A stretch of 38,374 bases of DNA, from contig NZ_JADMKV010000044.1 of the NCBI RefSeq assembly GCF_015476545.1, positions 1-38,374 of the forward strand, written 5' to 3'. Source of the DNA: Methylobacter sp. BlB1 (GTDB taxonomy: Bacteria; Pseudomonadota; Gammaproteobacteria; Methylococcales; Methylomonadaceae). The position numbers and the translations under genes were made by a program. The notes under the pieces were generated by a model. That model ran no database searches. It saw nothing but the letters and a program-made list of their open reading frames with translations, and had not been told where the DNA came from. Positions 6,138 through 20,304 of this stretch are shown here, in pieces. Position 1 is the first letter of the stretch. Each line of letters begins with the position of its first letter.

Positions 6138-7361
6138 CTATGCTACGCGTTTGAAAATCAGAGACGTATTTATACCACCAAAAGCGAAATTATTGCTCAT
6201 GATGTGTTCGCATTCCAGAATCCGGACATCGCCTGTTATGTAATCAAGCTCCGCGCATTTGGAATCGATGTGGTCCAGATTGACCGTGGGATGAAACCAG
6301 CCTTCGTTCATCATCCGGATGGCCGTCCAGGCTTCCAGTGCGCCGCAGGCGCCCAGCGTATGGCCCGTATAGCTTTTCATGGCGCTGATCGGCGTGCGCG
6401 AGCCGAACACGGCCGCCGTGGCATGGCTTTCGGCGATGTCGCCGTGATCGGTCGCCGTGCCGTGCGCGCTGATGTAGCCGATGTCGGCCGCTTCAAGCCT
6501 CGCATCCTGCAGCGCCAGACGCATGGCGATCTGCATGCTCTCACTGTTGGGCTGGGTGACGTGCAGGCCGTCCGAGTTGGTGCCGAAGCCGGCCACCTCG
6601 GCGTAAATATGCGCACCGCGCGCCAGCGCATGCTCGCGCTCCTCCAGAATCAAGGTGCCGGCGCCCTCGCCGATGACCAGGCCGTCGCGGTCGCGGTCGA
6701 AAGGCCGCGGCCTTCTGTGCGGCTCGTCGTTGCGGATGCAGGTCGCGAACAGCGTGTCGAACACGGCCGCTTCGGAGGCCGAAAGCTCCTCGGCGCCGCC
6801 GGCCACCATCACGGTCTGGTAGCCGTGCCTGATCGCCTCATAGGCATAGCCTATGCCCTGGCTGCCCGAGGTGCAGGCGCTGGAAGTCGTATAAACACGG
6901 CCGTTGATGCCGAAAAACAGGCCGATATTGACCGGCGCCGTATGCCCCATCATGCGGATATAGGAGGTGGCGTTGAGGCCGTCGACGGCATGATTGATCA
7001 GCATATTGCCGAATTCGGCCACTGCCTCGAGGCTGCCGGCCGAACTGCCATAGGCAATGCCCGTCTGTCCGCTGCTCAGGCAAGGATCGCCTAAAAGTCC
7101 GGCATCGGCCAGCGCCAGTTCGGTCGCGTAAACGGCCAGCAGGGCGATGCGGCCCATGCTGCGCGTCTGCTTTCGCGTATAATGCGCCGGCTTCGTGAAC
7201 TCGGCCGGCGCGCCGAGCCGCGTATTCAAGCCCCGGTATTTTTCCCAGTCGGCCATATAGCGGATGCCCGTGGACCGGGTTTTCAGCCGTGCCGCGACCT
7301 GCGGCCAATCGTTGCCTATCGGCGAAATGCCGGCCATGCCGGTCACAACGACTCGCCTCAT
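6138..7361 (-). CDS. FabF-like beta-ketoacyl-ACP synthase, APE type (ApeR position)
   Basis: The 407-residue condensing enzyme has the full thiolase-fold catalytic set: Cys163 (TTSSACTSGS), His300 (ISAHGTATDHGD), Lys329 and His334 (MKSYTGHTLGACG). It should therefore be active in decarboxylative Claisen condensation on an acyl carrier protein. The open frame extends far upstream, but that part is only a shadow of the reductase gene. The genuine ATG at 7361 overlaps the reductase stop as TGATG, indicating translational coupling. In described APE operons the order is ketosynthase, dehydratase, ketoreductase, ketosynthase, and this gene sits in the last position (ApeR). That enzyme is thought to act early in chain building; its role here is inference. 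Confidence 0.88.
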   Translation of the reverse strand: MRRVVVTGMAGISPIGNDWPQVAARLKTRSTGIRYMADWEKYRGLNTRLGAPAEFTKPAHYTRKQTRSMGRIALLAVYATELALADAGLLGDPCLSSGQTGIAYGSSAGSLEAVAEFGNMLINHAVDGLNATSYIRMMGHTAPVNIGLFFGINGRVYTTSSACTSGSQGIGYAYEAIRHGYQTVMVAGGAEELSASEAAVFDTLFATCIRNDEPHRRPRPFDRDRDGLVIGEGAGTLILEEREHALARGAHIYAEVAGFGTNSDGLHVTQPNSESMQIAMRLALQDARLEAADIGYISAHGTATDHGDIAESHATAAVFGSRTPISAMKSYTGHTLGACGALEAWTAIRMMNEGWFHPTVNLDHIDSKCAELDYITGDVRILECEHIMSNNFAFGGINTSLIFKRVA

Positions 7362-8086
7362 CAGCACAGGCCTCCGTTCACGGAAATGACCTGGCGCGTG
7401 ATGTAGCCGGCATCGTCCGACATCAGGAAGGCCACGGCCGCGGCGACTTCGCGCGGATTGCCGACGCGCCGCGCCGGCACTATTTTTTTGATCTCGTCGA
7501 GCGGCAGTTCGCTGACCATCTCGGTATCGATCAGGCCCGGCGCCACGCAGTTGACGGTAATGTCGCGCTTGGCCAGTTCCAGCGCCAGCGCTTTCGTGGC
7601 GCCGATGATGCCGGCCTTGGCCGCGCTGTAGTTGACCTGCCCGCGATTGCCGATCAGCCCCGACACTGATGACAGCGTCACGATGCGGCCCGGCTTGCGG
7701 CGCCTGACCATAGGCATGATCACGGGATGCAGGACGTTGTAGAAGCCGTCCAGATTGGTATGCACGACATTGTCCCACTGCATGCCGGTCAGCGACGGAA
7801 AGGCGTTGTCGGCCGTGATGCCGGCGTTGCAGACCACACCGAAGTAAGCGCCGAAAGCCTCGATATCGGCGTTGATTTGCTCGGCGCATTGCGCCCGGTC
7901 GGCGATGTCGAATTGCAGAATGCGGACAGTCCGGCCCAGCCGCTCGATGTCGCCTGCTACGGCCTCGGCCTCGGCGCGCCGGCTGCGGCAGTGCAGCACC
8001 AGATCGAAGCCGCGCTCGGCCAGATACAAGGCAATGGCCTTGCCGATGCCGCGGCTGGAGCCCGTTACTAAAATCGTTTTATTCAT
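7361..8086 (-). CDS. FabG-like 3-oxoacyl-ACP reductase (ApeQ position)
   Basis: The 241-residue classical short-chain dehydrogenase has the cofactor loop TGSSRGIG (8-15), CNAG (86-89), and the catalytic triad Ser140, Tyr153, Lys157 (YSAAK). Arg12, part of the cofactor loop, favours NADPH. In an aryl-polyene pathway it would reduce the 3-oxo group after each condensation. It starts at an ATG overlapping the dehydratase stop (ATGA) and its stop overlaps the next ketosynthase, so the four pathway enzymes are translationally chained. Length and motifs are those of ordinary FabG, so assignment to the pigment pathway rests on context. Confidence 0.9.
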   Translation of the reverse strand: MNKTILVTGSSRGIGKAIALYLAERGFDLVLHCRSRRAEAEAVAGDIERLGRTVRILQFDIADRAQCAEQINADIEAFGAYFGVVCNAGITADNAFPSLTGMQWDNVVHTNLDGFYNVLHPVIMPMVRRRKPGRIVTLSSVSGLIGNRGQVNYSAAKAGIIGATKALALELAKRDITVNCVAPGLIDTEMVSELPLDEIKKIVPARRVGNPREVAAAVAFLMSDDAGYITRQVISVNGGLC

Positions 8087-8514
8087 AACTCTGTGTCATT
8101 AAGCGGAGGTTGGTAAACATTCAGATTGGCGCTGATCTCGATGTCATCGCCCAGAATCCGGCATTCGAAAGCGCCCAGCCTGTCGTCCTGCATGATTTTC
8201 TCGACATGCACCGTCAAAGTAGTGCCGACCTTGAATTCGGCTGCGTTGCCGCTGTAACGCCGCGTGCCCAGCAGGAAGCCGAGCCTGATCGGCTCCCCGG
8301 CGAGCCTGGCTTTCATGCCGGCATAGGCGCCGATGGTCTGCGCCATGTATTCGATGCCGACCCAGGCCGGTACGGTTTTATCGTCGCCGAACAGGCCGCT
8401 GCGCACGACCAGTTCGGCCGACAGACTGTTATCGTCAAAGGCAATCACGCGGTCCAGCAGTATCATCGGGCCGGTATGCGGGATCAGTTCGGCAATAGCG
8501 GGAAAATCGTTCAT
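8083..8514 (-). CDS. 3-hydroxyacyl-ACP dehydratase, hotdog fold (ApeP-like)
   Basis: At 143 residues this is a single hotdog domain. The N-terminal IPHTGPMILLDRV resembles the FabA/FabZ active-site His segment, with His13 in the catalytic position. WVGIEYMAQTIGAYAG (51-66) gives the central helix with the acidic Glu55. It would remove water from the 3-hydroxyacyl intermediate to create each conjugated double bond. It overlaps the reductase by ATGA. Upstream of its ATG lies a 157-base gap with a pair of palindromic repeats, the only sizeable break in this half of the operon. Confidence 0.82.
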   Translation of the reverse strand: MNDFPAIAELIPHTGPMILLDRVIAFDDNSLSAELVVRSGLFGDDKTVPAWVGIEYMAQTIGAYAGMKARLAGEPIRLGFLLGTRRYSGNAAEFKVGTTLTVHVEKIMQDDRLGAFECRILGDDIEISANLNVYQPPLNDTEL

Positions 8515-8671: not shown

Positions 8672-9850
8672 TCATGCTCTACCTACCACTATCGATAGAT
8701 TGTTGCCGCCGAACGCGAACGAATTGCTCTGGCAGGTGTCGATGCGCCGCCCCAGGCGCTCACCTTTTCTTACCAGATGCAGCGGCGCTAGTTCGGGATC
8801 GGGCTCATCGCCGCTGACATTGGGGATCAGGGCGTCTTCGCTGCTGCCGGTCAGCAGCAGCCAGCAGAAACCCAGCTCCAGCGCGGCCGCCGCGCCCAGG
8901 GTATGGCCGGTCATGCCCTTGCTGGAACTGACCGCCAGAGCCGGCCCGAACACGGCGTTGACGGCCGCGCTTTCCATGGCATCGTTTAATACCGTGGCAG
9001 TGCCGTGCAGGTTCAGGTAATCGATTTGATCGGGCGTCTTGCCAGCATCGGCCAGGGCCAGCTGCATGGCTTTGATCACGGCCTTGCCGGCCGGGTCCGG
9101 CGCCGAAAAGTGGTAGGCGTCGCTGGTCGCGCCGATGCCCAGCAAGGCGACGGGGCCGGGCTGCCGGCTCAGCACGAACAGGCTGGCCGCCTCGCCGATG
9201 TTGATGCCGTCGCGGCGCCGCCCGAACGGCTTGCAGTGGCCGGCGCTGATCGATTCAAGCGCGGCAAAGCCGTTGATGGTCAGGCCGCACAGGCTGTCGG
9301 CGCCGCCGACGATGACCGCATCGCAAAGGTCCAGATTGAGCAGTCGGCGCGCCGAAGCAAACGCCTTGCCGCTGGACGAGCAGGCTGTGGAGATCGTGTA
9401 GGCAGTCCCGGCCAGGTTCAGATAAGCAGTCAGAAAGTCGGCGCCGGCGCCCATTTGCTGCTGCTTGTAGTGGAACCGGTCGGGCAGGGCGCCGGCTTGC
9501 GTCACCGAAGCCAGTGCCTGTTCGGTGCTTAGTACGCCCGACGTACTGGTGCCGATGACGACGCCGATGCGGTCGCGCCCGAACGATGCGGTCATCGCAT
9601 CGACGGTCGGCCTGATTTGTTCCAGAGCGGCCAGCAGCAATTGATTGTTGCGGCACTGGTAAACGCTGTATTCAGTCGGGATCTCGGGCAATTCGCTGTC
9701 AATGCGGCCCACGATGGTCTCGCGCCCGGGACTGAACCGATCGGTCATCACCAGCCCCGAGCGGTCGCCTGCCACGAGCCGCCTGCCGACCTCGGCTTTG
9801 GAACCGCCGAGCGCGCACAAGAGGCCTAAATCATTCAGGTAAAACGTCAT
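8672..9850 (-). CDS. beta-ketoacyl-ACP synthase (ApeO position)
   Basis: This is a 392-residue condensing enzyme. The nucleophile is Cys157 in STACSSSGKA, with His282 (LHGTATVLND), Lys311 and His316 (SSKGMTGHTLGA). All catalytic residues are present, so this is a ketosynthase and not a degenerate chain-length factor. It differs clearly from the second ketosynthase at 6138-7361. In characterised APE systems the ApeO type pairs with a catalytically poor partner (ApeC); no such partner is visible here. It overlaps the preceding lipoprotein gene by 20 bases, indicating the same operon. Its own downstream neighbour is separated by paired palindromic repeats. Confidence 0.88.
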   Translation of the reverse strand: MTFYLNDLGLLCALGGSKAEVGRRLVAGDRSGLVMTDRFSPGRETIVGRIDSELPEIPTEYSVYQCRNNQLLLAALEQIRPTVDAMTASFGRDRIGVVIGTSTSGVLSTEQALASVTQAGALPDRFHYKQQQMGAGADFLTAYLNLAGTAYTISTACSSSGKAFASARRLLNLDLCDAVIVGGADSLCGLTINGFAALESISAGHCKPFGRRRDGINIGEAASLFVLSRQPGPVALLGIGATSDAYHFSAPDPAGKAVIKAMQLALADAGKTPDQIDYLNLHGTATVLNDAMESAAVNAVFGPALAVSSSKGMTGHTLGAAAALELGFCWLLLTGSSEDALIPNVSGDEPDPELAPLHLVRKGERLGRRIDTCQSNSFAFGGNNLSIVVGRA

Positions 9851-10433
9851 AACTGAGAGTCTTGATGTCCAAGCGATAATGGTATTGATGATTGGTCAGC
9901 TCGACGTCCCGGGGCCATGCGGCATCGGGCGACAAATAGCGGACTTCAGCCTTCTTATCATCCTGATGATATAAAATCCGGCCGTTCGGGTCGGCCTCCA
10001 GCCGCCAGCCGGCCGGCAGTATTTTTTCCAGGCCGGCGACGGGCCAGTAGACCAGCTGCAGATCGGCGATTATGAATTCCGGCGCCACGGCATCGGGCAG
10101 CAGCGGGCTCTTGTCGGACGTCAGGGTATGGCCGTCGTAGCTTAAGTTGAACAGGCTCAGCCCTTCGTTCGTCAGACCGGCCATGGCGATATGCCGGTCA
10201 TCCAGTTCCAGCACGCAAACCAGGGTTTCCTGCCTGTCCGTCCAGGTGGCCGTCAATTGCTGCACGACATGCCGCGCCGGCCCTGTCGGCGGCGCAATCG
10301 GCAGCGCGACAGGTTCTCCTGCAATTTCTTTGTGTTGCAGCGCCGAGCAGCCCGTCAACAAGGTCAGCATCATGAAAAAAACAGCCATAAAAACGGGCGG
10401 CCTGCCGGTCGCTGCGTCAATCAATCCGGTCAT
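9831..10433 (-). CDS. DUF3261-type lipoprotein of aryl-polyene clusters
   Basis: The ATG at 10433 overlaps the flavoprotein stop (ATGA). It gives a 200-residue product with a hydrophobic segment and lipobox LLTGC, with Cys29 as the predicted lipid attachment site, followed by Ser (outer-membrane sorting). The mature domain contains CVLELDDRHIAMAGL, LFNLSYDG and VYWPV, patterns I associate with the DUF3261 family found in APE loci (ApeN position). It is thought to act at the outer membrane with the LolA-like and MMPL proteins encoded upstream. The frame is open six codons further upstream, but the coupled ATG is preferred. Exact function is unproven in the family. Confidence 0.75.
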   Translation of the reverse strand: MTGLIDAATGRPPVFMAVFFMMLTLLTGCSALQHKEIAGEPVALPIAPPTGPARHVVQQLTATWTDRQETLVCVLELDDRHIAMAGLTNEGLSLFNLSYDGHTLTSDKSPLLPDAVAPEFIIADLQLVYWPVAGLEKILPAGWRLEADPNGRILYHQDDKKAEVRYLSPDAAWPRDVELTNHQYHYRLDIKTLSYDVLPE

Positions 10434-11710
10434 TCCTTGTCGCTGCGGCAAAATGCCGCCAGCGTATCGAGCCTTGAACGGGCATTTTTGACGTAAGGGT
10501 TGTTTTCGTCCCAGGCATAGCCGGCCAGTATCGAACTGATCATCGCCTTGACTTCGGGCCGCTGTTTGTCGTGGAAGATCACATCCTGAAACCGGCCGTC
10601 GTACCAGGCGTCGACGAACACGCGGAAGGTGTCGACGCCGCGCTGCAAGGGGCTCGCGTAATCGGACTGCCAGTCGACCGCTTCACCGTTGAACTGGCGG
10701 TCCAAAGCCGCGGCGGCCAGGCTGGCCGATTTCATGGCGATCGTGACGCCGGACGAAAACACCGGATCCAGGAATTCGCCGGCATTGCCCAGCAGGGCGT
10801 AGCCCTTGCCGTACAGGTTTTTGACATTGGCCGAATAGCCGGTAATGGTGTTCACGGGGCTGTCGAATTCGGCCTTGCCCAGCAGCTCCGTCAGGCTCGG
10901 GTCCTGGCCCACGACCTGCCGCAACGCCGCCTTGTTGTCAGCGGGCAGCGCATCAAAGAATTCCTGCCGGGCCACGACGCCCAGGCTGCTGCGGCCGTTG
11001 CTGAACGGTATCAGCCAGAACCAGACGTCTTCATGGTCGGGATGCACGGTAATGCGGATCTTGTTCCGGTCGAAGCGCGCATCGGCGTCGATGCGGTCCT
11101 CGATATGCGTGAACAACGCCTGCCGGATCGGAAAGCCCGAAGGCGATTCCAGATCCAGCAGTCTTGGCAATATGCGGCCGAAACCGCTGGCGTCGAGCAC
11201 GAAATCGGCTTCACAGGTCGACAATTCGCCCGACGCATCGCGCACGGTCAGCTTCGGCTTGTCGGCCGAGAAATCGGCCTCCAAGACCTCCTGCTGCCAG
11301 CGGATTTCGACGCCCATGCGCTCGGCTTCCTGCGCCAGCAGCATGTCGAATGCCCCGCGCTGTACCTGGAAGGTCGTGCCGATGCCGGCGGTAAACTTGT
11401 CTTCGAAGGAAAAATCGGTGTATTTGCAGCCGCGCACGAACGAGGCGCCGTCCTTGTATTGAAATCCGGCATTAATGACGGCTTCCAGCATGCCGGCTTC
11501 CTTGATGAATTCCATGCATTGCGGCAACAGGCTTTCACCGATGCTGAAGCGCGGGAACAGATTGCGCTCCAGAATCGTGACGCGATAGCCCTTGTTTGTC
11601 AGCAAGGCTCCGGCGATGCTGCCCGAAGGCCCGGCGCCGATAATGATGACGTGGTGAGGATGGCTGTTTTGAATATTAGCGCCTTGTTGCTGACCTGCTG
11701 CTGATGACAT
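10430..11710 (-). CDS. FAD-dependent halogenase-like oxidoreductase
   Basis: The 426-residue flavoprotein has an FAD-binding GAGPSG (25-30), the GESLLP signature (58-63) after an NLFPRFSIG segment, and a second FAD motif GYALLGNAGEFLDPV. Two hallmarks of FADH2-dependent halogenases are present: a WxWxIP motif (W230-F-W-L-I-P235) and a lysine at the position of the hypohalite-handling residue (Lys86 in GFQYKDGA). If functional it would halogenate a phenolic ring, needing a flavin reductase that is not in the window. The alternative is a hydroxylase or polyene oxidase of the same superfamily. It is the first gene of the downstream half of the APE operon; its 3' end is coupled to the lipoprotein gene. 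Upstream lies a divergent intergenic region. Confidence 0.75.
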   Translation of the reverse strand: MSSAAGQQQGANIQNSHPHHVIIIGAGPSGSIAGALLTNKGYRVTILERNLFPRFSIGESLLPQCMEFIKEAGMLEAVINAGFQYKDGASFVRGCKYTDFSFEDKFTAGIGTTFQVQRGAFDMLLAQEAERMGVEIRWQQEVLEADFSADKPKLTVRDASGELSTCEADFVLDASGFGRILPRLLDLESPSGFPIRQALFTHIEDRIDADARFDRNKIRITVHPDHEDVWFWLIPFSNGRSSLGVVARQEFFDALPADNKAALRQVVGQDPSLTELLGKAEFDSPVNTITGYSANVKNLYGKGYALLGNAGEFLDPVFSSGVTIAMKSASLAAAALDRQFNGEAVDWQSDYASPLQRGVDTFRVFVDAWYDGRFQDVIFHDKQRPEVKAMISSILAGYAWDENNPYVKNARSRLDTLAAFCRSDKE

Positions 11711-11997: not shown

Positions 11998-12789
11998 ATG
12001 GACTTAGCGTATATCGTTTCGGGCTTGCTGGTCGGAACTTTAGTGGGTTTGACCGGCGTGGGAGGCGGCTCGTTGATGACGCCGCTGCTGGTTTTCCTGT
12101 TTGATTTTGCCCCGAAAACGGCGATCGGCACGGATTTGTTGTTCGCGGCCATTACCAAAACCGGCGGTGTGCTAGTTCATCACAACAAGCATCAGTCGGT
12201 CGAATGGAAAATCGTCGGGCTTCTGGCATTGGGCAGTCTGCCGGCCTCGCTGACGGTTGTTTATTTGCTGACTTATGTGATGGAAAAGAATGACGGCGTC
12301 ACGCAACTGATGACCACGACATTGGGAGTGACGCTGATTTTAACGGCCATGTCACTGATTTTCCGCAGCGTTTTTACCCGCAAAAGCCATGAAATTGCAT
12401 TGCAGCGCAAGACGCACCATGAGCGCTTCGGACGCTGGCAGAGCCCTCTAACGGTCCTGACCGGCATCGTTCTGGGCGCACTGGTCACGCTGACTTCGGT
12501 AGGCGCGGGCGCGCTGGGCACGGTGACTTTATTATTCCTGTATCCGCGCCTGGCGACCGTGCGCATCGTCGGCACCGACCTGGCGCACGCGATTCCGCTG
12601 ACGGCCGTCGCAGGGCTCGGGCATATGCACATGGGCAATGTGGATCTGGTATTGCTGGGCAGCCTGCTGGTCGGCTCCCTGCCCGGCATTTACGTCGGCA
12701 GCTATTTCAGCGCCAAGATTCCGGAAAAGGTGCTGAGACCCCTATTGGCGAGCCTTTTGATATTAATTGGCCTAAAATTCGTCTTGTAA
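11998..12789 (+). CDS. TauE/SafE-family membrane permease
   Basis: The 263-residue integral membrane protein has about eight hydrophobic segments in two homologous halves. The first half carries LVGLTGVGGGSLMTPLL and the second LVTLTSVGAGALGTVTLLFLYP, the repeated glycine-rich signature of this family. Members export sulfite, sulfonates or other organic anions; the substrate here is unknown. It lies on the plus strand between two minus-strand halves of the APE-type operon, so it interrupts that operon and is probably transcribed alone. An AAGG lies upstream of the ATG. The gene converges on the P-type ATPase gene, with a GC-rich hairpin possible between the two stops. Confidence 0.85.
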   Translation: MDLAYIVSGLLVGTLVGLTGVGGGSLMTPLLVFLFDFAPKTAIGTDLLFAAITKTGGVLVHHNKHQSVEWKIVGLLALGSLPASLTVVYLLTYVMEKNDGVTQLMTTTLGVTLILTAMSLIFRSVFTRKSHEIALQRKTHHERFGRWQSPLTVLTGIVLGALVTLTSVGAGALGTVTLLFLYPRLATVRIVGTDLAHAIPLTAVAGLGHMHMGNVDLVLLGSLLVGSLPGIYVGSYFSAKIPEKVLRPLLASLLILIGLKFVL

Positions 12790-12808
12790 GACGAGACGAG
12801 CGCGAAGC

Positions 12809-12825
12809 GAGCGGCACCGCCGCTC
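12809..12825. terminator. possible hairpin between convergent genes
   Basis: GAGCGG (12809-12814) and CCGCTC (12820-12825) can pair with a five-base loop, between the TauE stop and the ATPase stop. No U-run follows on either strand, so this is only a weak candidate for a shared terminator. Confidence 0.25.
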
Positions 12826-12866
12826 TCCGAACAAGCTGCCCGCGCTTTAGGGCATGAGACATCGCC

Positions 12867-15560
12867 TCAACTTTTTCCGGTCCAGTATTTCCATTTGGCA
12901 ACCGCGAACTTGCGCACTTCCTCCAGCAACAGCATCGCCAGCGCAAACGGCAGGATGAATAGCCACACATCAGGCGCCAGCGGCAGCGTGCCGAATATCA
13001 AATTGCCCCAGGCTGTGTAGTCGATGATGACGACCAGCGCGATTTCCAGGACGATGCCCCCCAGGATGATCCGGTTGTCGAAGGCGGGCGCGCTGAATAC
13101 ACTGCGCTCCGGCGTCTTGCAGAGAAACACGTTGACGATCTGCATGACGATGATGGCGCTGAAGCAGGCGGTCGTGGCCTTAAGGTACAAAGGATCCTGG
13201 CTGTCCCGCCCTTCACCCCACTGCCAGCCGCCGCTGTACAGCACATAGAAATAAGCCGACATGGCGGCAATCGCCTCCATTACTCCTAAAAAAAGATAAG
13301 CGCGGGTTAACAGACGCCAGTCCAGCAGTCTTTCCTTGCGCGGGCGCGGCGGCTTGGCCATGTTGCCCGGCTCGGGCTTGGCTGCGCCCAGTCCCAGGGC
13401 CGGCAGCATATCCGTTCCGAGATCGACGGCCAGGATCTGGATGATGGTCAAGGGCAAGGGGATTTTGAGCAGCGCAAAGGCCAGATAGGGTACGACCTCG
13501 GGAATGTTGGAGGTCAGGATATAGGTGAGGAATTTGCGGATATTCTCATAAACGGTACGCCCCTCCTCGATGGCTGCGACAATACTGGCGAAATTGTCGT
13601 CGAGCAGGACCATATCGGCAGCCTCCTTGGCCACGTCCGTGCCGGCCACGCCCATTGCGATGCCGATGTCCGCGGTTTTCAGAGCTGGCGCATCATTGAC
13701 GCCGTCACCCGTGACTGCGACGACGTGTTTTTTCTTCTTTAGCGCTGTGACGATGCGCATTTTCTGGTCGGCCCCAACCCGCGCGAAAATGAGGTCCGGC
13801 GCATCCAGGACCAGGCGCAGCTGGATGTCGGACAGTCTATGCAACTGTTCGCCGGTAATCACGATCGGGTTGTCAGTCTGAATTTGGCCAATCTGCCGGC
13901 CTATCGCCTGCGCCGTATGCGGATGATCACCCGTTATCATGATGACCTTGATGCCTGCGGCCCGGCACTTACTTATAGCGGCCGGCACCTCGGGCCTGGG
14001 CGGGTCTTCCAGCCCGACCAGCCCAGCTAGGATCAGGTCCCTCTCCTGCGCCGGCGCATTGTGGCTGTCCTCCAGCATCCGCCATGCGAACGCCAGTACG
14101 CGCAGCCCTCTGCCGGCCATATCTTCCTGAGCATTCAGATACGCTTGCCGGGCATCCTGCGTCATCGGTACGGTCCCTGCTGCGGTCTGTATTTGCGTGC
14201 ACAATGGCAGCAGCGCTTCCAGGGCGCCTTTGCAATACAGCACGATGCCGGCCGGCGTATGATGGATTGTGGACAGGCGCTTGCGATCGGTATCGAACGG
14301 TACTTCATTGATCTTGGGATAGCCGCGCACCTCGCCCAGGCAAGTCTTGGCCATACGCACCAGCGCGATTTCCATAGGATCACCCATTAATTGCCACTTG
14401 CCATTGAGCAGCGTTTCCTTCAGGTTATGGCACAGCAGCGCATCTTCGAAGAGCCGGCGGTGCGTATGCGCCAGTTCCGGCTGCCGCTGTACCGCTGTCG
14501 GCGTCAACATCTGCCCGTCCAGATAGAGCGCGTTGACTGTCATGCGGTTCTCGGTCAGCGTGCCGGTCTTGTCGGTACAGATCACAGTCGCCGAGCCTAA
14601 TGCCTCCACGGAAGGCAGGTGCCGGATCAGAGCATTGCGCTTGGCCATGCGCTGCGTGGCCATAGCCAGCGACAGCGTGACCGTCGGCAGCAGGCCCTCC
14701 GGCACGTTGGCAACGATAATGCCTATCGCAAAAATGAAGTTGTCCCAGAACGACATGTGCATGCTGTGCCCGATCAGGAAAAACACCAGGCCCAGCGTGA
14801 CGGCCAGAATCGCGATCAAACGGCTCAGGCGCACGATCTCGCGCTGCAGCGGCGAGCGGGTTTTGCTCGCGGTCTGGGTCAGATGGGCGATTTTGCCGAA
14901 TTCGGTATGCATGCCGGTCGCAAACACCAGGGCCCGGCCCTCGCCCGAAACGACCGACGTACCGGCCAGCAATGTATTGCGGCTGTGCTCCAGACGTTCT
15001 TCGGAAGAAGGCAGGGCATCGCGTGCTTGCGGTCGTGATTCGCCGGTCACGGTGGCGTTATTGACGCGCAGCGAGAACGCTTCCAGCAGGCGGCAATCCG
15101 CCGGCACGTTATCGCCTTCCTGCAATAAAATGACGTCGCCTGGCACCAGGGCAGCCGCGAAAATCAATCCGACCTTGCCGTCCCTGATCACCTTGACATG
15201 CTGAGGCAGCAGTTTCTGCAGCGCGGCGATGGCGCGTTCAGCGCGGTACTGCTGCCAGAAAGAGAACAAGCCATTGATAACGATAACGCCCAGGATGGCA
15301 TAGCCCAGCATGGCCATGCCCTCGCCCGGATGCCGGGATTCGGCGAAAAACGCCAGCCCCGCCGCAATCCAGAGAATCAGCGCAAAAAAATGTACAAACT
15401 CCCGGATAAAGCTCAGCCACAGCGGCTCGCCCTGCACCTGTTCGACGCGATTGGGGCCGTATTCGCGCAAACGGTTTTCAACTTGTGCCGCCAACAGTCC
15501 TTCATGATGACTGTGGAGGCTGGCAAGTGCTTCATCGATACTGAACTGATGTATTTTCAT
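12867..15560 (-). CDS. type II cation-translocating P-type ATPase (Na+/K+-ATPase-like)
   Basis: The 897-residue pump has the complete P-type set: TGES (172-175) in the actuator domain, PEGLLPT (287-293) in membrane helix 4, the phosphorylated Asp330 in DKTGT, MITGDHP, and GDGVNDAPALK at the hinge. The VANVPEGLLPT wording and the C-terminal LEEVRKF resemble type IIC (Na+/K+-, H+/K+-) pumps more than the PEGLP of calcium pumps. An N-terminal cation-ATPase domain (1-70) precedes the first helices. The frame opens four codons earlier at a TTG; the ATG at 15560 is preferred. It lies on the same strand as, but functionally apart from, the pigment genes on both sides. Transported ion is inferred only. 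Confidence 0.85.
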   Translation of the reverse strand: MKIHQFSIDEALASLHSHHEGLLAAQVENRLREYGPNRVEQVQGEPLWLSFIREFVHFFALILWIAAGLAFFAESRHPGEGMAMLGYAILGVIVINGLFSFWQQYRAERAIAALQKLLPQHVKVIRDGKVGLIFAAALVPGDVILLQEGDNVPADCRLLEAFSLRVNNATVTGESRPQARDALPSSEERLEHSRNTLLAGTSVVSGEGRALVFATGMHTEFGKIAHLTQTASKTRSPLQREIVRLSRLIAILAVTLGLVFFLIGHSMHMSFWDNFIFAIGIIVANVPEGLLPTVTLSLAMATQRMAKRNALIRHLPSVEALGSATVICTDKTGTLTENRMTVNALYLDGQMLTPTAVQRQPELAHTHRRLFEDALLCHNLKETLLNGKWQLMGDPMEIALVRMAKTCLGEVRGYPKINEVPFDTDRKRLSTIHHTPAGIVLYCKGALEALLPLCTQIQTAAGTVPMTQDARQAYLNAQEDMAGRGLRVLAFAWRMLEDSHNAPAQERDLILAGLVGLEDPPRPEVPAAISKCRAAGIKVIMITGDHPHTAQAIGRQIGQIQTDNPIVITGEQLHRLSDIQLRLVLDAPDLIFARVGADQKMRIVTALKKKKHVVAVTGDGVNDAPALKTADIGIAMGVAGTDVAKEAADMVLLDDNFASIVAAIEEGRTVYENIRKFLTYILTSNIPEVVPYLAFALLKIPLPLTIIQILAVDLGTDMLPALGLGAAKPEPGNMAKPPRPRKERLLDWRLLTRAYLFLGVMEAIAAMSAYFYVLYSGGWQWGEGRDSQDPLYLKATTACFSAIIVMQIVNVFLCKTPERSVFSAPAFDNRIILGGIVLEIALVVIIDYTAWGNLIFGTLPLAPDVWLFILPFALAMLLLEEVRKFAVAKWKYWTGKS

Positions 15561-15638
15561 GGCGGTTCCCAAGCACGATGTTCCTATCGAACAGAGGCTT
15601 ATGAGCGCTGATCAGTTCCCGACGGTTGCGGATCGCCC

Positions 15639-17951
15639 TTATCGTGTCTGTTTACCCACCAGCGGCGCCAGCAGCAAGGCCGTCAGAATGCCGGCCGCGA
15701 CGGTAAAGCCGAAGGCGTGGACGATAGCTGTGGAGCTGACGGCCAGCAGACCGAAAGACAGCAGCGTCGTGATGGCCGACAGCGTGACGGCCAGCGAGGT
15801 GCTGGACCGTTCATCTTCGGCCAGAAAGAAGAAGATGCCGTAGTCCACGCCTATGCCCAGCACCAGCAGCAGCGCGAACAGGTTGAACAGGCTGAACAGC
15901 TGGTCAAACCAGCCCAGCATGGACAGGGAAACGGCTGTCGCGAAAACAGGCACGGAAATGATCATCAGCGCATTGCGCCAGCCGAATTTGAGTGCCAATC
16001 CTATCAGTACAATGCCGTAGGCGGCGATCAGCAGAGCGCTGGCGCTGGTCCGGTAGCGCTCGAACAGCGACGAGAGCTGGGTCGCCTGGTCCACCCAGCG
16101 TACGCCCTGCAAGTCGTTCAGCTGCGACAGGGCATTTAGATTCTTGATGTCGGTTAATGACACGGTACTTATACAACGACCGGCATCGCAGCCCAGCCAG
16201 TGAATTTTCCGGGCTTCATCGGCGCTGTCGAGCCATTCGGCCAGGCTGATGCGGCTGTTTTCGGCGGCTTTAAACCGCTGCTGTTCTGCGGCAATGGCCT
16301 GCTCGTCAAAGCCCAGCTCCGCCATGTAGCGTTTCAGCAGGCCGGCCTCATAGAACGTCCGTTTCAGCAGATGATAATTGTCGCGCTGCGTGTCCGGGTC
16401 AGGCCAGTAGCGGCTGAGGCCGTCGTAAGACTCCATTGCGCCCTGTTGTTTCAGGGTTTCAAGACGCGCCAGCAACGCCTGCTCGTTCCGATGCCAGTCC
16501 TGCGGGTCTTTTCCGGACACCAGAAAAAATTGGCTGTCGGCTCTCACAGGCAGCAACTGCCGGATTTTCTGATCGGCCGCCAGGCGTTCGGTGGAGGCCG
16601 ACTGCAACAGGCGCACGTCATCGCGCGGCGTCAGCTGCCAGAGCCCGCCCGCAACTGCCGCAATCGCCACCGGCGCGAGCCAGGCTCGGTTTCTCAGCAG
16701 CCAGACCCGCCAGTGCTGTTGCCAATAATTCGTCAGCCGTAGCATGGTCGGCTTGTGCGCAGGCTTGAAGCCCGTCAGCAGCAGCGGGAACAGCAGGACC
16801 ACGGTGGCCCAGGCGCCGATCAGGCCGATGACCGAGAAAAACGCAATCTCCTGCAGGAGAGGAAACGGCGCGACGCCCAGGCTGGCGTAGCTGACCAGGC
16901 TGGTTCCCAGATCCAGCGTGATGCCCAGCAGGATGTACTGCAATCCCTTGGCAGGCGCCCAGTTTTCCGAACTGAAGCTGCTGCAGAAATAATGCAGCGC
17001 ATAGTCGATGCCGACGCCGATCAGGCTGGCGCCGAACACCAAGGTCAGGAGGTGGATTTTGCCGAACACCATGATGCTGACAACCAGCGCCGCAAACGTG
17101 CTGGCCGCGATGCCTAAACAGGACAGCAGCAGCGGCCGGGCGCTGCGGAAGGTCAGCAGCAACAGCAGGATGCCGAGCGTGGAGCCGATGCTGACGATGG
17201 CGATCTCGCGTTGCGCGCTGTGCGAGCCCTCGGCCGTGAACAGCGGCATGCCGGTCGCGAGCAGTTCGCCGCCGGCTGCCTCGATCCGGCCTTGCGCGCC
17301 ATTCATGAGCTCCCGCAATACATCCAGATTGTCCAGATGCAGCTTGTTGTCGGCCATGTCAGCGATCAGCAGCGCCCAGAAGCGGCCGCCGTCCTGCACG
17401 AGCACCACGCCCTGTTCCAGCGTGAACCGGCCCGGATTCTGGGCGTTGAAGTAGCGGCTGAACAGCAGCAGCGGGTCGCGTTCGAGATTCGCCGCCTGCA
17501 GTTGCCCGAGCGGGCTGTAGAGCATTTCCAGATTGCGGCCTATAAGCGTCTCGGGCTGGGCCAGCAGCATGCCGCGCGTCTGCGCATCAAGCAGTTGGTA
17601 ACGGTAAACGAACAGCTGCTGATAACGTTTGGCAAAGTCCTGCTGATCCACCTGCAGCCGGATATCCTTGAACAGGCCGCTTTGCTCGAACCGTTCCTTA
17701 AGCTGGCCGGCATAGGCGATCGCTTGCGGCGCCGAACCCGCGCCGGTCAGACAGATGACCTTGCCGTTGATAAGTTCGTTATGTTGGCGTACGGCCTGGG
17801 CGATTTCAGGCTGCTGTTCGGTGGCCGGCAACAGCGCCAGGAAGCCTGTTTCCAGCCAGTCTGCCGTCAACAGGCGGCTGCCGGCGAAGCCCAGCGCCAG
17901 CAAGCCCAGCAGCCAGACGAATGCGGCTGTCCTAGGGCGATAAATGCGCAA
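15639..17951 (-). CDS. MMPL/RND-type exporter of the APE cluster
   Basis: This is a 770-residue membrane protein of two similar halves. Each has one N-terminal helix (about 9-29 and 425-441), a large periplasmic loop, and a five-helix block. The blocks contain the MMPL-type GVGIDYALHYF and GIGVDYGIFFF signatures, whose charged helix-4 residues serve proton coupling in RND pumps. In aryl-polyene loci such a protein is thought to move the lipid-linked pigment out of the inner membrane. Translation starts at a TTG (17951) inside the end of the LolA-like gene (20-base overlap), with GGAGAAG placed upstream, so the two are coupled. Downstream the operon is broken by the ATPase and TauE genes. Confidence 0.85.
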   Translation of the reverse strand: MRIYRPRTAAFVWLLGLLALGFAGSRLLTADWLETGFLALLPATEQQPEIAQAVRQHNELINGKVICLTGAGSAPQAIAYAGQLKERFEQSGLFKDIRLQVDQQDFAKRYQQLFVYRYQLLDAQTRGMLLAQPETLIGRNLEMLYSPLGQLQAANLERDPLLLFSRYFNAQNPGRFTLEQGVVLVQDGGRFWALLIADMADNKLHLDNLDVLRELMNGAQGRIEAAGGELLATGMPLFTAEGSHSAQREIAIVSIGSTLGILLLLLTFRSARPLLLSCLGIAASTFAALVVSIMVFGKIHLLTLVFGASLIGVGIDYALHYFCSSFSSENWAPAKGLQYILLGITLDLGTSLVSYASLGVAPFPLLQEIAFFSVIGLIGAWATVVLLFPLLLTGFKPAHKPTMLRLTNYWQQHWRVWLLRNRAWLAPVAIAAVAGGLWQLTPRDDVRLLQSASTERLAADQKIRQLLPVRADSQFFLVSGKDPQDWHRNEQALLARLETLKQQGAMESYDGLSRYWPDPDTQRDNYHLLKRTFYEAGLLKRYMAELGFDEQAIAAEQQRFKAAENSRISLAEWLDSADEARKIHWLGCDAGRCISTVSLTDIKNLNALSQLNDLQGVRWVDQATQLSSLFERYRTSASALLIAAYGIVLIGLALKFGWRNALMIISVPVFATAVSLSMLGWFDQLFSLFNLFALLLVLGIGVDYGIFFFLAEDERSSTSLAVTLSAITTLLSFGLLAVSSTAIVHAFGFTVAAGILTALLLAPLVGKQTR

Positions 17952-18516
17952 AATCGGCTTCTTCTCCGGCGGTTAAGCGTTCGGGATGAATGATGTTTTG
18001 AAAGTGCAATATGCTGCTGTTGCCGTTGCTCTCGAAGATTTCCAGCTCGCGCAGTTCATGGTCGCCGGACAATTGCATCCGGCTGATGACTTTCTTCATC
18101 ATCTCGTCCTTGGGCACAAGGCTGACCTGCCAGGCTATCTTTCTGACCGTTCCGTTGATGTCGAACGCCGTGGCCAGTTGCGACAGGTCCGCGCCCAGCA
18201 TGGCCTGGAACACCTTGCCGAACGCCGCCGGAACGGGCTGTTCGCCCTGCTCCGTCCACAGGCGCGTGTCGCTGATCAAGAGCAGCGACGGCACGGGCGA
18301 CAGCGTTTTCCAGGCGATGCCGCGGCTTTTATGGTAAATGAACGTGCCGTTCGAAATCAGCGGCTTGCGCAATACTTTCAGCTGCTTGGTCTGCTCAAAG
18401 GCGCCGCGCGTAATCGTGGCTTTGGTCAGACGGGCATGAATTTGATCGAGCAGCTCATCGGCCATGCAGACATTGACTGTTAATAGAAATAGCACCAGGG
18501 CTTTCAAATAAATCAC
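17932..18516 (-). CDS. LolA-like outer-membrane lipoprotein carrier protein of the APE cluster
   Basis: The 194-residue product has a signal peptide (hydrophobic 5-17, likely cleavage after Ala19 in CMA|DE) and a LolA-type beta-barrel sheet domain. The family's GAFEQTKQLKVLRKPLISNGTF segment near residues 38-59 matches the LolA pattern of an F-Q stretch followed by a strand of lipid-cavity residues. It is a periplasmic carrier thought to ferry a lipidic pigment intermediate. The start is GTG at 18516, overlapping the thioesterase stop as GTGA. Upstream and downstream genes overlap it, so the trio thioesterase-LolA-MMPL is one coupled unit. Confidence 0.82.
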   Translation of the reverse strand: MIYLKALVLFLLTVNVCMADELLDQIHARLTKATITRGAFEQTKQLKVLRKPLISNGTFIYHKSRGIAWKTLSPVPSLLLISDTRLWTEQGEQPVPAAFGKVFQAMLGADLSQLATAFDINGTVRKIAWQVSLVPKDEMMKKVISRMQLSGDHELRELEIFESNGNSSILHFQNIIHPERLTAGEEADFAHLSP

Positions 18517-18935
18517 GAAACCTCCACGCCCAGCTTCTCAAGCAGAATGCCCGGCGATTCAAAACACATTTCATCCTTGGCCAGATTGACGGCCACTTGA
18601 ATGCTGTAGCCTTTGGTCAGCCTGTCGCCGGTTTCCTTGTCGACGATCAGATAATTGATTTTCAGCCGGTTTTCCCATTCGACAATCTCCGCTTTTACGG
18701 TGATGACCTGTTCGAAAGCGGCCGGCTTGATATAACGCATGCGCAGATCGATCACGGGCCACGAGTAGCCCGAATCGCGCATTTGCCGATAATTGTAGCC
18801 GATCTGGTCCAGCAGGGCACAGCGCGCGATCTCAAAATACCGGACGTAATGGCCGTGCCAGACGATTTCCATCATGTCGACGTCGTGGAAGGGGATTTTC
18901 AGGTCGATAGCGGTTTGGCGGATTGGATCAGTCAT
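18513..18935 (-). CDS. 4HBT/YbgC-type hotdog acyl-thioesterase (ApeK-like)
   Basis: The 140-residue hotdog protein has the 4-hydroxybenzoyl-CoA thioesterase signature FHDVDMMEIVWHGHYVRYFE (residues 16-35). It includes the catalytic acidic residue (Asp18 or Asp20) and the conserved His-Gly-His-Tyr. Thioesterases of this type in APE operons release or edit carrier-bound chains. The ATG at 18935 overlaps the stop of a 17-codon micro-ORF (ATGA), and its own stop overlaps the LolA-like gene. It is the first complete gene of the operon as it now stands. Confidence 0.82.
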   Translation of the reverse strand: MTDPIRQTAIDLKIPFHDVDMMEIVWHGHYVRYFEIARCALLDQIGYNYRQMRDSGYSWPVIDLRMRYIKPAAFEQVITVKAEIVEWENRLKINYLIVDKETGDRLTKGYSIQVAVNLAKDEMCFESPGILLEKLGVEVS

Positions 18936-19050: not shown

Positions 19051-19173
19051 TTAGTCTGTAAAAATTAAGAAAATTATAAAACTATTTGCCCGCTCTACAC
19101 GGTTTTATAATCATCAATTCGAAAATATATGTGGAATTGGAAAAACTTCAAAACGAAGATCTACGGGAAAAAG

Positions 19174-19200
19174 ATCGTTCCCACGCCGGAGCCTGAACGA
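19174..19200. repeat. decayed REP unit in the 5' part of the restriction gene frame
   Basis: ATCGTTCCCACGCCGGAGC at 19174-19192 matches one half of the REP units that flank the RAYT gene (20323-20372 and 20934-20983), then diverges. It lies between two candidate start codons of the Mrr-like gene, which suggests that the codons before 19282 are not native coding sequence. Confidence 0.5.
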
Positions 19201-19281
19201 TATAAATTTAGTTTAATAGATCGAGTTTACTGCGTTTTTGCCTGCTCTGAACGTTTTATATTTAATAATTGGAAAACAAAA

Positions 19282-20304
19282 ATGGAAAAATTAACCGAAA
19301 ACCGGTGTTATCTGATCCGGACTAAACGTCATTTCGTAGATAGAGGTCTTGTTGCTATAGGATGGAGTAACATTGACTTCACGCAATATTCAAACTCTAA
19401 AGAGATCGTCGAAGCAATTAGTAATAAGTACATGATCGGTCGGAGAGCAAATCAAATTCGTCGTTTTGTTAATATGAAACAGGGAGATACCATAGTTATC
19501 CCACTTTCCATGGCAGTCGCAATCGGTTCTGTAAAGGATGATAATCTTATTTATTCGCCAGAAGATAAAGCAAAAGATCGAGCAAATCAGAGGCGCATTA
19601 ATTTTTTTAAAAATAGTAATGGGGAACTTGCCCTTATCCCACGAAAATCATTCGCTACTGCATTTCAGAGCAGATTAAGAGCGCCAGGAATAATTGTTAA
19701 TGACATCAGTGAATTCAAAGGACAGCTTGACAAAATCATTAATGATTTAGAGTCAAGTAAAAGTTTTTCATGGAGCAACCGAGCTCGTCAGGAAATAGAA
19801 AAGCTTGAAGAGGAGTTCAAATCGATGCTTTTAAAAAACATTAGAAACGGAAAGACAAATCTTCAAGCTGGCGGCATTGGATTGGAGCACCTTGTAAAGG
19901 AGCTCCTCAAGGTAGAAGGATATGAAGCAGATGTTCTAAGTAAAAGAGCATTTTCGAGTTTTGCAGATGCTGATGTTAAAGCATCAAAATCAGATAGATT
20001 CACGCAAACAAATTTACTGATACAAGTTAAACACCATCAAGGGACAACAGGTCATTGGGGAATCTGGCAATTAAAAGAAATCAAAAACCAATCCAAAATT
20101 GACTATTCTGATCACCAGCTAGTGCTAGTTACGTCAGCATCAGTTAGTGAGAAGCTGCGCGAAGATGCCAACGAGTTAGATATCACTGTTATTGATGGAA
20201 AAGGATTAGTTGACTGGATTTTTGATTGTCTTGAGGAATTGCCAGAAATGACGAAAATAAAACTTGGTATTTGTGAAGTTCCTCGAACCATTGAGTATCT
20301 ATAG
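19282..20304 (+). CDS. Mrr-like type IV restriction endonuclease
   Basis: This encodes 340 residues from the preferred ATG at 19282 (the frame is open from 19129, but that part carries a REP remnant). The N-terminal half (about 8-140) is an uncharacterised module beginning CYLIRTKRHFV. The C-terminal half from about residue 195 is an Mrr-type PD-(D/E)XK nuclease: GGIGLEHLVKELLKVEGYEA with Glu202, FADADV with Asp229/Asp231, and IQVK with Gln248 and Lys250. Such enzymes cut modified DNA. It is markedly AT-rich compared with both neighbours and has no methyltransferase partner, which fits a transferred type IV defence gene. The RBS is weak (GGAAAA). Target modification is unknown. Confidence 0.7.
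   Translation: MEKLTENRCYLIRTKRHFVDRGLVAIGWSNIDFTQYSNSKEIVEAISNKYMIGRRANQIRRFVNMKQGDTIVIPLSMAVAIGSVKDDNLIYSPEDKAKDRANQRRINFFKNSNGELALIPRKSFATAFQSRLRAPGIIVNDISEFKGQLDKIINDLESSKSFSWSNRARQEIEKLEEEFKSMLLKNIRNGKTNLQAGGIGLEHLVKELLKVEGYEADVLSKRAFSSFADADVKASKSDRFTQTNLLIQVKHHQGTTGHWGIWQLKEIKNQSKIDYSDHQLVLVTSASVSEKLREDANELDITVIDGKGLVDWIFDCLEELPEMTKIKLGICEVPRTIEYL

What the first reader, a model, noticed from the sequence alone, without database searches (positions are those of the whole stretch)
10430..11710. Halogenase-type flavoprotein inside an aryl-polyene operon
The protein keeps the WxWxIP motif (W230-F-W-L-I-P235) and the Lys86 that occupies the halogenase hypohalite position. Aryl polyenes of Xanthomonas (xanthomonadins) are brominated, while typical gammaproteobacterial APEs are not. 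This locus may therefore make a halogenated aryl polyene. A flavin reductase would have to come from elsewhere.
Basis: partly seen in the sequence, partly recalled or inferred. Interest (0 to 1): 0.75.

Follow-up and report, generated by a model that had tools for sequence, protein, structure and literature searches.

The report
Halogenase-like enzyme of aryl-polyene pigment clusters
The gene encodes a flavin enzyme that looks like a halogenase and belongs to a widespread branch found in gene clusters for yellow membrane pigments (aryl polyenes and flexirubins), so it may add chlorine or bromine to the pigment, but the papers searched tie no activity to this branch.

Summary
Window 10430-11710, minus strand, is an intact 426-aa flavoprotein with GxGxxG, Lys86 and W230-F-W-L-I-P235 in an aryl-polyene (APE) operon, plus a third halogenase signature, FLDPVFSSG 313-321. 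The gene is a recurrent APE accessory, usually between ApeM and ApeN: 16 of 17 sampled carrier genomes also have ApeP. Orthologues sit in Bacteroidota flexirubin-type clusters. It belongs to a clade (100/100) whose one solved member, 3nix, is titled only flavoprotein/dehydrogenase, apart from the solved halogenases in the tree and from FADs beside KS-CLF pairs in other aryl-polyene loci. Lys, WxWxIP and FxxPxxSxG are invariant in 119 of 119 clade rows, favouring halogenase chemistry. Against a simple reading: Asn309 (119 of 119) where 7 of 7 solved halogenases have Asp, and a chlorine-free flexirubin in Chitinophaga pinensis (PMC3992019), whose congeners' clusters carry the gene. Best reading: a two-component halogenase for the pigment's phenolic head group, product unproven (about 0.5).

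The parts
10430..11710 (-). FAD-dependent, halogenase-type flavoprotein of the APE/flexirubin clade, 426 aa
11453..11455 (-). codon of Lys86, position of the catalytic Lys of flavin-dependent halogenases
   Evidence: alignment (K in 119 of 119 clade rows, 6 of 6 solved halogenases with a residue there)
11006..11023 (-). W230-F-W-L-I-P235 (WxWxIP)
10748..10774 (-). F313-L-D-P-V-F-S-S-G321 (Fx.Px.Sx.G halogenase motif)
   Evidence: motif as described in passages of PMC8407142 and PMC12871659
10784..10786 (-). codon of Asn309, clade-wide Asn where the solved halogenases compared have Asp
9831..10451 (-). DUF3261 protein, ApeN; its listed start overlaps the end of the FAD gene
8672..9850 (-). beta-ketoacyl synthase, ApeO
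8083..8514 (-). ApeP-like dehydratase (PF22817)
7361..8086 (-). ketoreductase, ApeQ/FabG type
6138..7361 (-). beta-ketoacyl synthase, ApeR (the listed ORF 6138-7889 is longer; the KS domain starts at its residue 177)
15639..17951 (-). MMPL/RND exporter, ApeM
17932..18516 (-). LolA-like carrier, ApeL
18513..18935 (-). thioesterase, ApeK
12867..15572 (-). P-type cation ATPase lying between ApeM and the FAD gene; not an APE gene
11998..12789 (+). TauE/SafE transporter, divergent from the FAD gene; not an APE gene

Best explanation
The gene encodes a two-component, FADH2-dependent halogenase dedicated to aryl-polyene/flexirubin pathways. Shown here: sequence, predicted fold, motifs, clade and cluster membership. 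Inferred: a general flavin reductase encoded elsewhere supplies FADH2; O2 gives the C4a-hydroperoxide; a halide is oxidised to HOX; HOX travels the tunnel lined by FxxPxxSxG to Lys86; the electron-rich phenolic head group is chlorinated or brominated ortho to its hydroxyl, perhaps while carrier-bound, because the nearest solved halogenases by fold (ChlB4, Mpy16, PltA) are of the kind that acts on tethered substrates. The modification may be partial or dependent on conditions.
For: Pfam Trp_halogenase. Solved matches in order: 3nix 381.7 bits, ChlB4 147.4, CndH 143.6, CmlS 141.9, Mpy16 132.2, FasV (8zop) 125, PltA 120.9; p-hydroxybenzoate hydroxylases 27.3 bits or less (names of 3e1t, 5buk and 8zop). 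AlphaFold2 model with pLDDT 92 matches 3nix (TM 0.91-0.92), then ChlB4 0.84-0.86, PltA 0.79-0.85, Mpy16 0.83-0.84; in the 50 rows shown kynurenine and p-hydroxybenzoate hydroxylases come after all 40 rows of 3nix and halogenases. Lys86, W230, W232, I234, P235, F313, P316, S319 and G321 are invariant in 119 of 119 clade rows, whereas only 53 of the window protein's 426 positions are; 2 of 23 other FDH-like rows lack the Lys. Tight tie to APE clusters and to flexirubin-type clusters. A homologue of the ApeB methyltransferase ends less than 400 bases upstream in 33 of 80 Bacteroidota-led loci, pointing to head-group tailoring. Flexirubins are reported to vary in methylation and/or chlorination at the polyene ring (PMC3992019 introduction passage).
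Against: Asn309 replaces the Asp found in 7 of 7 solved halogenases and 23 of 23 other FDH-like rows. I found no member of the clade with a known activity in the papers searched. C. pinensis flexirubin is C43H54O4, no halogen (PMC3992019 section 7). The gene lies in the flexirubin-type cluster next downstream of the methyltransferase in all six named Chitinophaga isolates among my loci (L132, L137, L140, L146, L155, L157; within 400 bases in five, not L140); two MAGs titled C. pinensis (L122, L168) have the gene but no methyltransferase in their stretches, and C. pinensis DSM 2588 itself was not seen. Six of the 49 Bacteroidota-led loci of 20 kb or more show no pigment gene at all beside the FAD gene. 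The lyases of proteobacterial APE clusters mostly have an F-H pair at what I recall as the selectivity site (13 of the 14 printed, own LYTFHGCGLG), so a phenolic starter is not proven here.
Confidence: 0.5

Rival explanations
1. A halogenase-fold flavoprotein that does another oxidation (for example hydroxylation or a redox or quality-control step) on the APE/flexirubin intermediate, leaving no halogen in the product.
For: The clade is separate from the seven solved halogenases in the tree (100/100); clade-wide Asn for Asp at 309; halogen-free flexirubin in C. pinensis and a non-brominated arcuflavin in Azoarcus despite a gene listed as halogenase (PMC3992019; PMC3949708); related families named QhpG monooxygenase and LodB maturase are among the hits.
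Against: Lys86 and WxWxIP, whose proposed roles are handling HOX and hindering monooxygenation (passages of PMC7336383, PMC8407142, PMC12871659), are invariant in 119 of 119 rows. The C. pinensis formula fits a plain methylated octaene (my reckoning), so no extra oxygen is seen either.
Confidence: 0.33
2. Orthologue of the xanthomonadin halogenase, making a brominated xanthomonadin-like pigment.
For: Both are halogenase-type FAD proteins in aryl-polyene loci; xanthomonadin clusters carry a halogenase (passages of PMC3691225 and PMC3838355).
Against: FADs next to a KS-CLF pair, which I take from that arrangement for the xanthomonadin/arcuflavin kind, fall outside the clade: L112, L115, L116 (clade 99 SH-aLRT; their own place is weak) and L028 with its relatives L019 and L022. 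Genome G034 has the window type in an APE cluster and two other FAD types within about 25 kb. XanB2 genes were not looked for and no named Xanthomonas sequence was compared.
Confidence: 0.07
3. Member of a geranylgeranyl-reductase or hydroxylase family without halogenase chemistry by descent.
For: NCBIfam GG-reductase superfamily 111 bits and QhpG 100 bits appear among the hits.
Against: Both are below their curated cut-offs (158.8 and 240); the fold and sequence ranking favours halogenases; all four halogenase motifs are present. No true QhpG or reductase was in the trees.
Confidence: 0.1

Closest known systems
PDB 3nix, 'flavoprotein/dehydrogenase' of Cytophaga hutchinsonii
   Same: Same clade, 44% identity, TM 0.91-0.92, same motifs and the same Asn at 309
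   Different: The entry title names no activity; Bacteroidota
Flavin halogenases ChlB4, Mpy16, PltA (carrier-dependent kind)
   Same: Fold (TM 0.79-0.86); WxWxIP and FxDPxFSSG in all three, Lys in ChlB4 and Mpy16 (that part of PltA was not in the alignment)
   Different: 23-28% identity over the structural alignment; outside the APE/flexirubin clade; Asp instead of Asn309
Flexirubin-type gene clusters (loci of Chitinophaga, Flavobacterium, Chryseobacterium, Maribacter and others)
   Same: Contain an orthologue of the window protein (41-45% identity in A2 and A3), often close behind an ApeB-like methyltransferase
   Different: Other gene sets; the own genome has no ApeB match at E <= 1e-20
E. 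coli CFT073 APE cluster (ApeA-R)
   Same: ApeK-L-M-N-O-P-Q-R gene order
   Different: ApeM and ApeN overlap with no FAD gene between; has the ApeB methyltransferase and no annotated ammonia-lyase (PMC8253772 Table 1 passage)

Membership tests
Flavin-dependent halogenases (two-component) | GxGxxG FAD motif | tested here: met
   GAGPSG at 25-30
Flavin-dependent halogenases (two-component) | WxWxIP | tested here: met
   230-235; 119 of 119 clade rows keep W, W, I, P
Flavin-dependent halogenases (two-component) | Catalytic Lys | tested here: met
   Lys86; 119 of 119 clade rows, 6 of 6 solved halogenases with a residue there
Flavin-dependent halogenases (two-component) | Fx.Px.Sx.G | tested here: met
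   FLDPVFSSG 313-321
Flavin-dependent halogenases (two-component) | Asp of the GD motif (shared by the solved members compared; not a published defining feature in what I read) | tested here: not met
   Asn309; D in 7 of 7 solved and 23 of 23 other FDH-like rows; of the 4 rows grouped with KS-CLF-adjacent loci 1 has D and 3 have E
Flavin-dependent halogenases (two-component) | Partner flavin reductase | tested here: inconclusive
   Two PF01613 proteins elsewhere in the genome, none on this contig
Flavin-dependent halogenases (two-component) | Halogenating activity | not testable with these tools
   needs enzyme assay or mass spectrometry
APE/flexirubin flavoprotein clade (3nix type) | Falls in the clade | tested here: met
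   100/100 support, 47-row tree; 99 SH-aLRT, 89-row tree
Aryl-polyene gene cluster | ApeO, ApeP, ApeQ, ApeR, exporter and LolA beside it; ApeC, ACPs, ApeG, ApeH in the genome | tested here: met
   window; contig C205 holds the rest plus an aromatic ammonia-lyase
Xanthomonadin/arcuflavin halogenases | Orthology to FADs beside KS-CLF pairs | tested here: not met
   (unnamed loci judged by arrangement; no named Xanthomonas or Azoarcus sequence)
Geranylgeranyl reductase / QhpG families | Score over the curated cut-off | tested here: not met
   111 < 158.8 and 100 < 240 bits

The most novel reading that the evidence does not exclude
The APE/flexirubin clade is a distinct halogenase subclass, marked by Gly-Asn instead of Gly-Asp at the flavin site, that halogenates aryl-polyene head groups across Proteobacteria and Bacteroidota. 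That would make halogenated aryl polyenes common (16 of 36 and 26 of 36 ApeP-bearing genomes in my two samples carry the gene) and would name the chlorinase of flexirubins.
Probability: 0.42. Interest if true: 0.65.

Novelty: new variant of a known kind. Interest (0 to 1): 0.42.

Why it matters
[quoted passage not shown] coli cluster that was dissected gene by gene lacks this enzyme. If the clade halogenates, a large share of these pigments has a head-group chemistry that I found no report of in the searches made, and the enzyme behind chlorinated flexirubins becomes a single-gene question. If it does not, a large halogenase-like clade with intact catalytic motifs does something else, which would weaken motif-based annotation of halogenases.

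Tried and rejected
FAD and ApeB methyltransferase as alternative head-group tailoring genes: suggested by the class sample (36 ApeP genomes: FAD 16, ApeB 7, both 1; one-sided Fisher p 0.08), not repeated in the order sample (36: FAD 26, ApeB 5, both 3; p 0.43); pooled without the two shared genomes p 0.03. In Bacteroidota-led loci the two lie close together in 33 of 80. Rejected as a rule. What remains: no proteobacterial locus printed held both; in L208 the methyltransferase occupies the ApeM-ApeN slot; in G435 and G472 the FAD gene stands alone, away from the APE cluster (L200, L202).

FAD as hydroxylase needed for a cinnamate starter: the gene also occurs in APE loci in whose fetched stretch no lyase was found (L004, L058, L061, L062, L067, L068), and F-H lyases also occur in loci without the gene (L102, L103, L105, L107, L201, L203). 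Not supported, not excluded.

Xanthomonadin orthology, GG-reductase and QhpG membership: rejected as above. The QhpG family search gave no match over its cut-off in 369 genomes, so no true QhpG entered the tree. One scan of viral contigs with six peptide patterns found no relative. PHROGs gave one family, 'tryptophan halogenase', at 54.2 bits.

Literature: searches for aryl polyene or arylpolyene with halogenase or halogen, xanthomonadin with halogenase, flexirubin with halogenase, chlorinated or flavin-dependent halogenase, and aryl polyene with FAD-dependent hydroxylase gave, in the listings and passages seen, no paper that assigns an activity to this clade; only open-licence papers are held. 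Supplementary tables of PMC3992019 were not readable, so the cluster content of C. pinensis DSM 2588 is inferred from congeners.

Full report
What is there. Window 10430-11710 on the minus strand encodes a 426-residue FAD protein. Pfam places it in Trp_halogenase (81.8 bits) and FAD_binding_3 (63.7 bits). NCBIfam's best match is CmlS at 160.8 bits, far below its equivalog cut-off of 900, so it is not CmlS itself.

Neighbourhood. Minus strand, in transcription order: thioesterase (ApeK), LolA-like (ApeL), MMPL exporter (ApeM), a P-type ATPase, the FAD gene, DUF3261 (ApeN), KS (ApeO), ApeP-like dehydratase, KR (ApeQ), KS (ApeR). A TauE transporter on the + strand lies between the ATPase and the FAD gene. 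ATPase and TauE also lie there in the same-genus genome G002 (L030), and TauE stands next to the FAD gene in the short loci L009 and L010 (G003 and G001), whereas in the same-family genome G017 (L051) the exporter adjoins the FAD gene; I read this as an insertion particular to the genus. The other half of the pathway (ApeC-type chain-length factor, acyltransferase, two ACPs, ApeG, ApeH, glycosyltransferase, acyltransferase, aromatic ammonia-lyase) is on contig C205 of the same genome. The search of the own genome found one match to the FAD protein and two PF01613 flavin reductases, both on other contigs.

How common. In Pseudoalteromonas and Acinetobacter records the same gene sits between ApeM and ApeN. 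In E. coli CFT073 ApeM and ApeN overlap and the gene is absent, as in Table 1 of PMC8253772 (passages). Among 41 genomes (own and relatives) 12 have a match of 59% identity or more. In an even sample of 369 genomes of the class, 17 have the gene at E <= 1e-60 and 36 have ApeP over its cut-off; by my comparison of the two lists 16 of the 17 are among the 36 (G163 is not). In 135 genomes of the order of G201 the counts are 27 and 36, with 26 shared (not G432). Fisher p values are 3e-17 and 1e-18; the samples share at least G201 and G310, and relatedness is not corrected. Of 15 neighbourhoods fetched for the class carriers other than G000 and G013 (L056-L070), 13 show APE genes and 2 (L069, 4.9 kb; L070, 11.4 kb) only the FAD gene; in 12 of the 13 the gene detected next upstream is the exporter, or LolA where no exporter was detected (L058); L065 is the exception.

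Relatives outside. The best solved match is 3nix (Cytophaga hutchinsonii, 'flavoprotein/dehydrogenase'), 381.7 bits; named halogenases score 147.4 or less. Of the 49 loci of 20 kb or more, 31 carry both APE-like KR and KS genes and 26 an ApeB-like methyltransferase; 9 show neither the KR-KS pair nor methyltransferase nor lyase, and 6 of these 9 (L121, L130, L133, L135, L138, L139) show no gene of my query set but the FAD gene. Across all 80, 33 have the methyltransferase ending less than 400 bases upstream of the FAD gene. The gene order in Chitinophaga loci such as L132 (lyase, KR, KS, ACP, acyltransferase, dehydratase, thioesterase, KS, methyltransferase, FAD...) is consistent with the lettered functions given for the flexirubin cluster of C. 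pinensis (PMC3992019 section 4, first of two parts). None of the terms halogen, FAD, oxidoreductase, monooxygenase, dehydrogenase, FlxJ or FlxK occurs in that paper's main text.

Phylogeny. A 47-row tree (mixture model) groups the proteobacterial APE type, the Bacteroidota type and 3nix (29 rows) against seven solved halogenases and eleven other FDH-like rows at 100/100. An 89-row quick tree agrees (99 SH-aLRT) and also leaves out the FADs next to a KS-CLF pair in L112, L115 and L116, whose own position is weak and long-branched. Rows were hand-picked from 152 distinct rows plus 8 PDB rows. L028, a FAD next to another KS-CLF pair in G034, and its relatives L019 and L022 are separate too. I take the KS-CLF-adjacent kind for the xanthomonadin/arcuflavin halogenases because PMC3691225 describes that arrangement (Figure 5 legend); XanB2 was not looked for and no named Xanthomonas sequence was available.

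Active site. Over 119 clade rows (38 of the proteobacterial type, window included; 81 of the Bacteroidota-led set, 3nix included) Lys86, W230, W232, I234, P235, F313, D315, P316, S319, S320 and G321 never vary. Eight rows were set aside before this count: by elimination a duplicate of the window (L001), two fragments (L080, L085), the truncated G188 copy (L045) and four FDH-like rows outside the clade or not placed (L220, L221, L222, L226). 53 of the window protein's 426 positions are invariant in the 119 rows. Lys is thought to hold or react with HOX (PMC7336383 passages), WxWxIP to prevent monooxygenation and Fx.Px.Sx.G to line the tunnel (PMC8407142 and PMC12871659 passages). One residue sets the clade apart: Asn309 in 119 of 119 rows, Asp in 7 of 7 solved halogenases and 23 of 23 other FDH-like rows; of the 4 rows I had grouped as KS-CLF-adjacent 1 has Asp and 3 Glu. 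I recall this Asp as the GD-motif residue that binds the FAD ribityl chain in this fold; the change to Asn is not evidence of loss of function but marks a distinct group.

Structure. The model (pLDDT 92.0, pTM 0.90, 26 aligned sequences) matches 3nix best, then ChlB4, Mpy16, PltA, CmlS, RadH, FasV, Bmp2, CndH, CtcP and PltM, and from row 41 of the 50 shown kynurenine and p-hydroxybenzoate hydroxylases; no tryptophan halogenase is among the 50.

Chemistry. Flexirubins are said to vary in methylation and/or chlorination at the polyene ring (PMC3992019 introduction passage), which makes a chlorinase in these clusters plausible. The flexirubin of C. pinensis itself is C43H54O4 and carries one methionine-derived methyl and no halogen (PMC3992019 section 7). 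Arcuflavin of Azoarcus is non-brominated although its table lists a halogenase (PMC3949708, passages and discussion). So the gene alone does not predict a halogenated product. Of 14 proteobacterial lyases printed, 13 have F-H and one (L060) Y-H where the one Bacteroidota lyase printed (L191) has S-H; I recall this as the selectivity site and do not claim a 4-coumarate starter for the window.

Tailoring logic. I tested whether the FAD gene and the ApeB methyltransferase exclude each other. They do not at genome level (class p 0.08, order p 0.43, pooled 0.03), and in Bacteroidota they are often neighbours. In the proteobacterial loci printed no single locus held both, and in L208 the methyltransferase occupies the very slot between ApeM and ApeN. 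This fits two head-group tailoring enzymes that are gained and lost independently.

Verdict. Observation confirmed; interpretation partly supported. Most likely a halogenase for the pigment head group (0.5), with a non-halogenating flavoenzyme as the main rival (0.33). The decisive evidence is chemical and cannot be had from sequence.

Noticed in passing
window 11998-15572: A P-type cation ATPase and a divergent TauE/SafE transporter separate ApeM from the FAD gene; both are seen in G002 (L030) and TauE also in L009 and L010, but in the same-family genome G017 (L051) the exporter adjoins the FAD gene.
   Followed up: partly
own contigs C166 (window) and C205 (L027, L048): The APE pathway is split into two loci on different contigs, with the ammonia-lyase in the second.
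   Followed up: yes
L200 (G472) and L202 (G435): Lone copies of the FAD gene with no APE gene detected within the 20-kb stretch, while the APE cluster of the same genome has an ApeB homologue in or near it.
   Followed up: no
L208, 5086-10353: ApeB-type methyltransferase placed exactly between ApeM and ApeN, the slot of the FAD gene elsewhere.
   Followed up: no
L068 / L045 (G188): The FAD gene appears in two overlapping pieces; the match in the longer open frame starts at residue 85 of the query. May be a sequencing error or decay; only described.
   Followed up: no
L028 and L029 (G034); L019, L022, L023, L026: Further FDH-like genes: in G034 two beside the APE cluster, one nearest FasV, Mpy16 and PltA and one nearest ChlB4 and Mpy16 among solved structures; in L019, L022, L023 and L026 the same two kinds stand side by side, surroundings not examined.
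   Followed up: partly
L112 5590-7161, L115, L116: A deep, long-branched FAD group next to a KS-CLF pair; the L112 protein's best solved match is 3nix at only 69 bits.
   Followed up: partly
L121, L130, L133, L135, L138, L139: Bacteroidota loci in which the FAD orthologue stands without any gene of my APE query set within about 10 kb.
   Followed up: no
window 19129-20304: A protein with an Mrr-type restriction endonuclease domain beside the APE operon.
   Followed up: no
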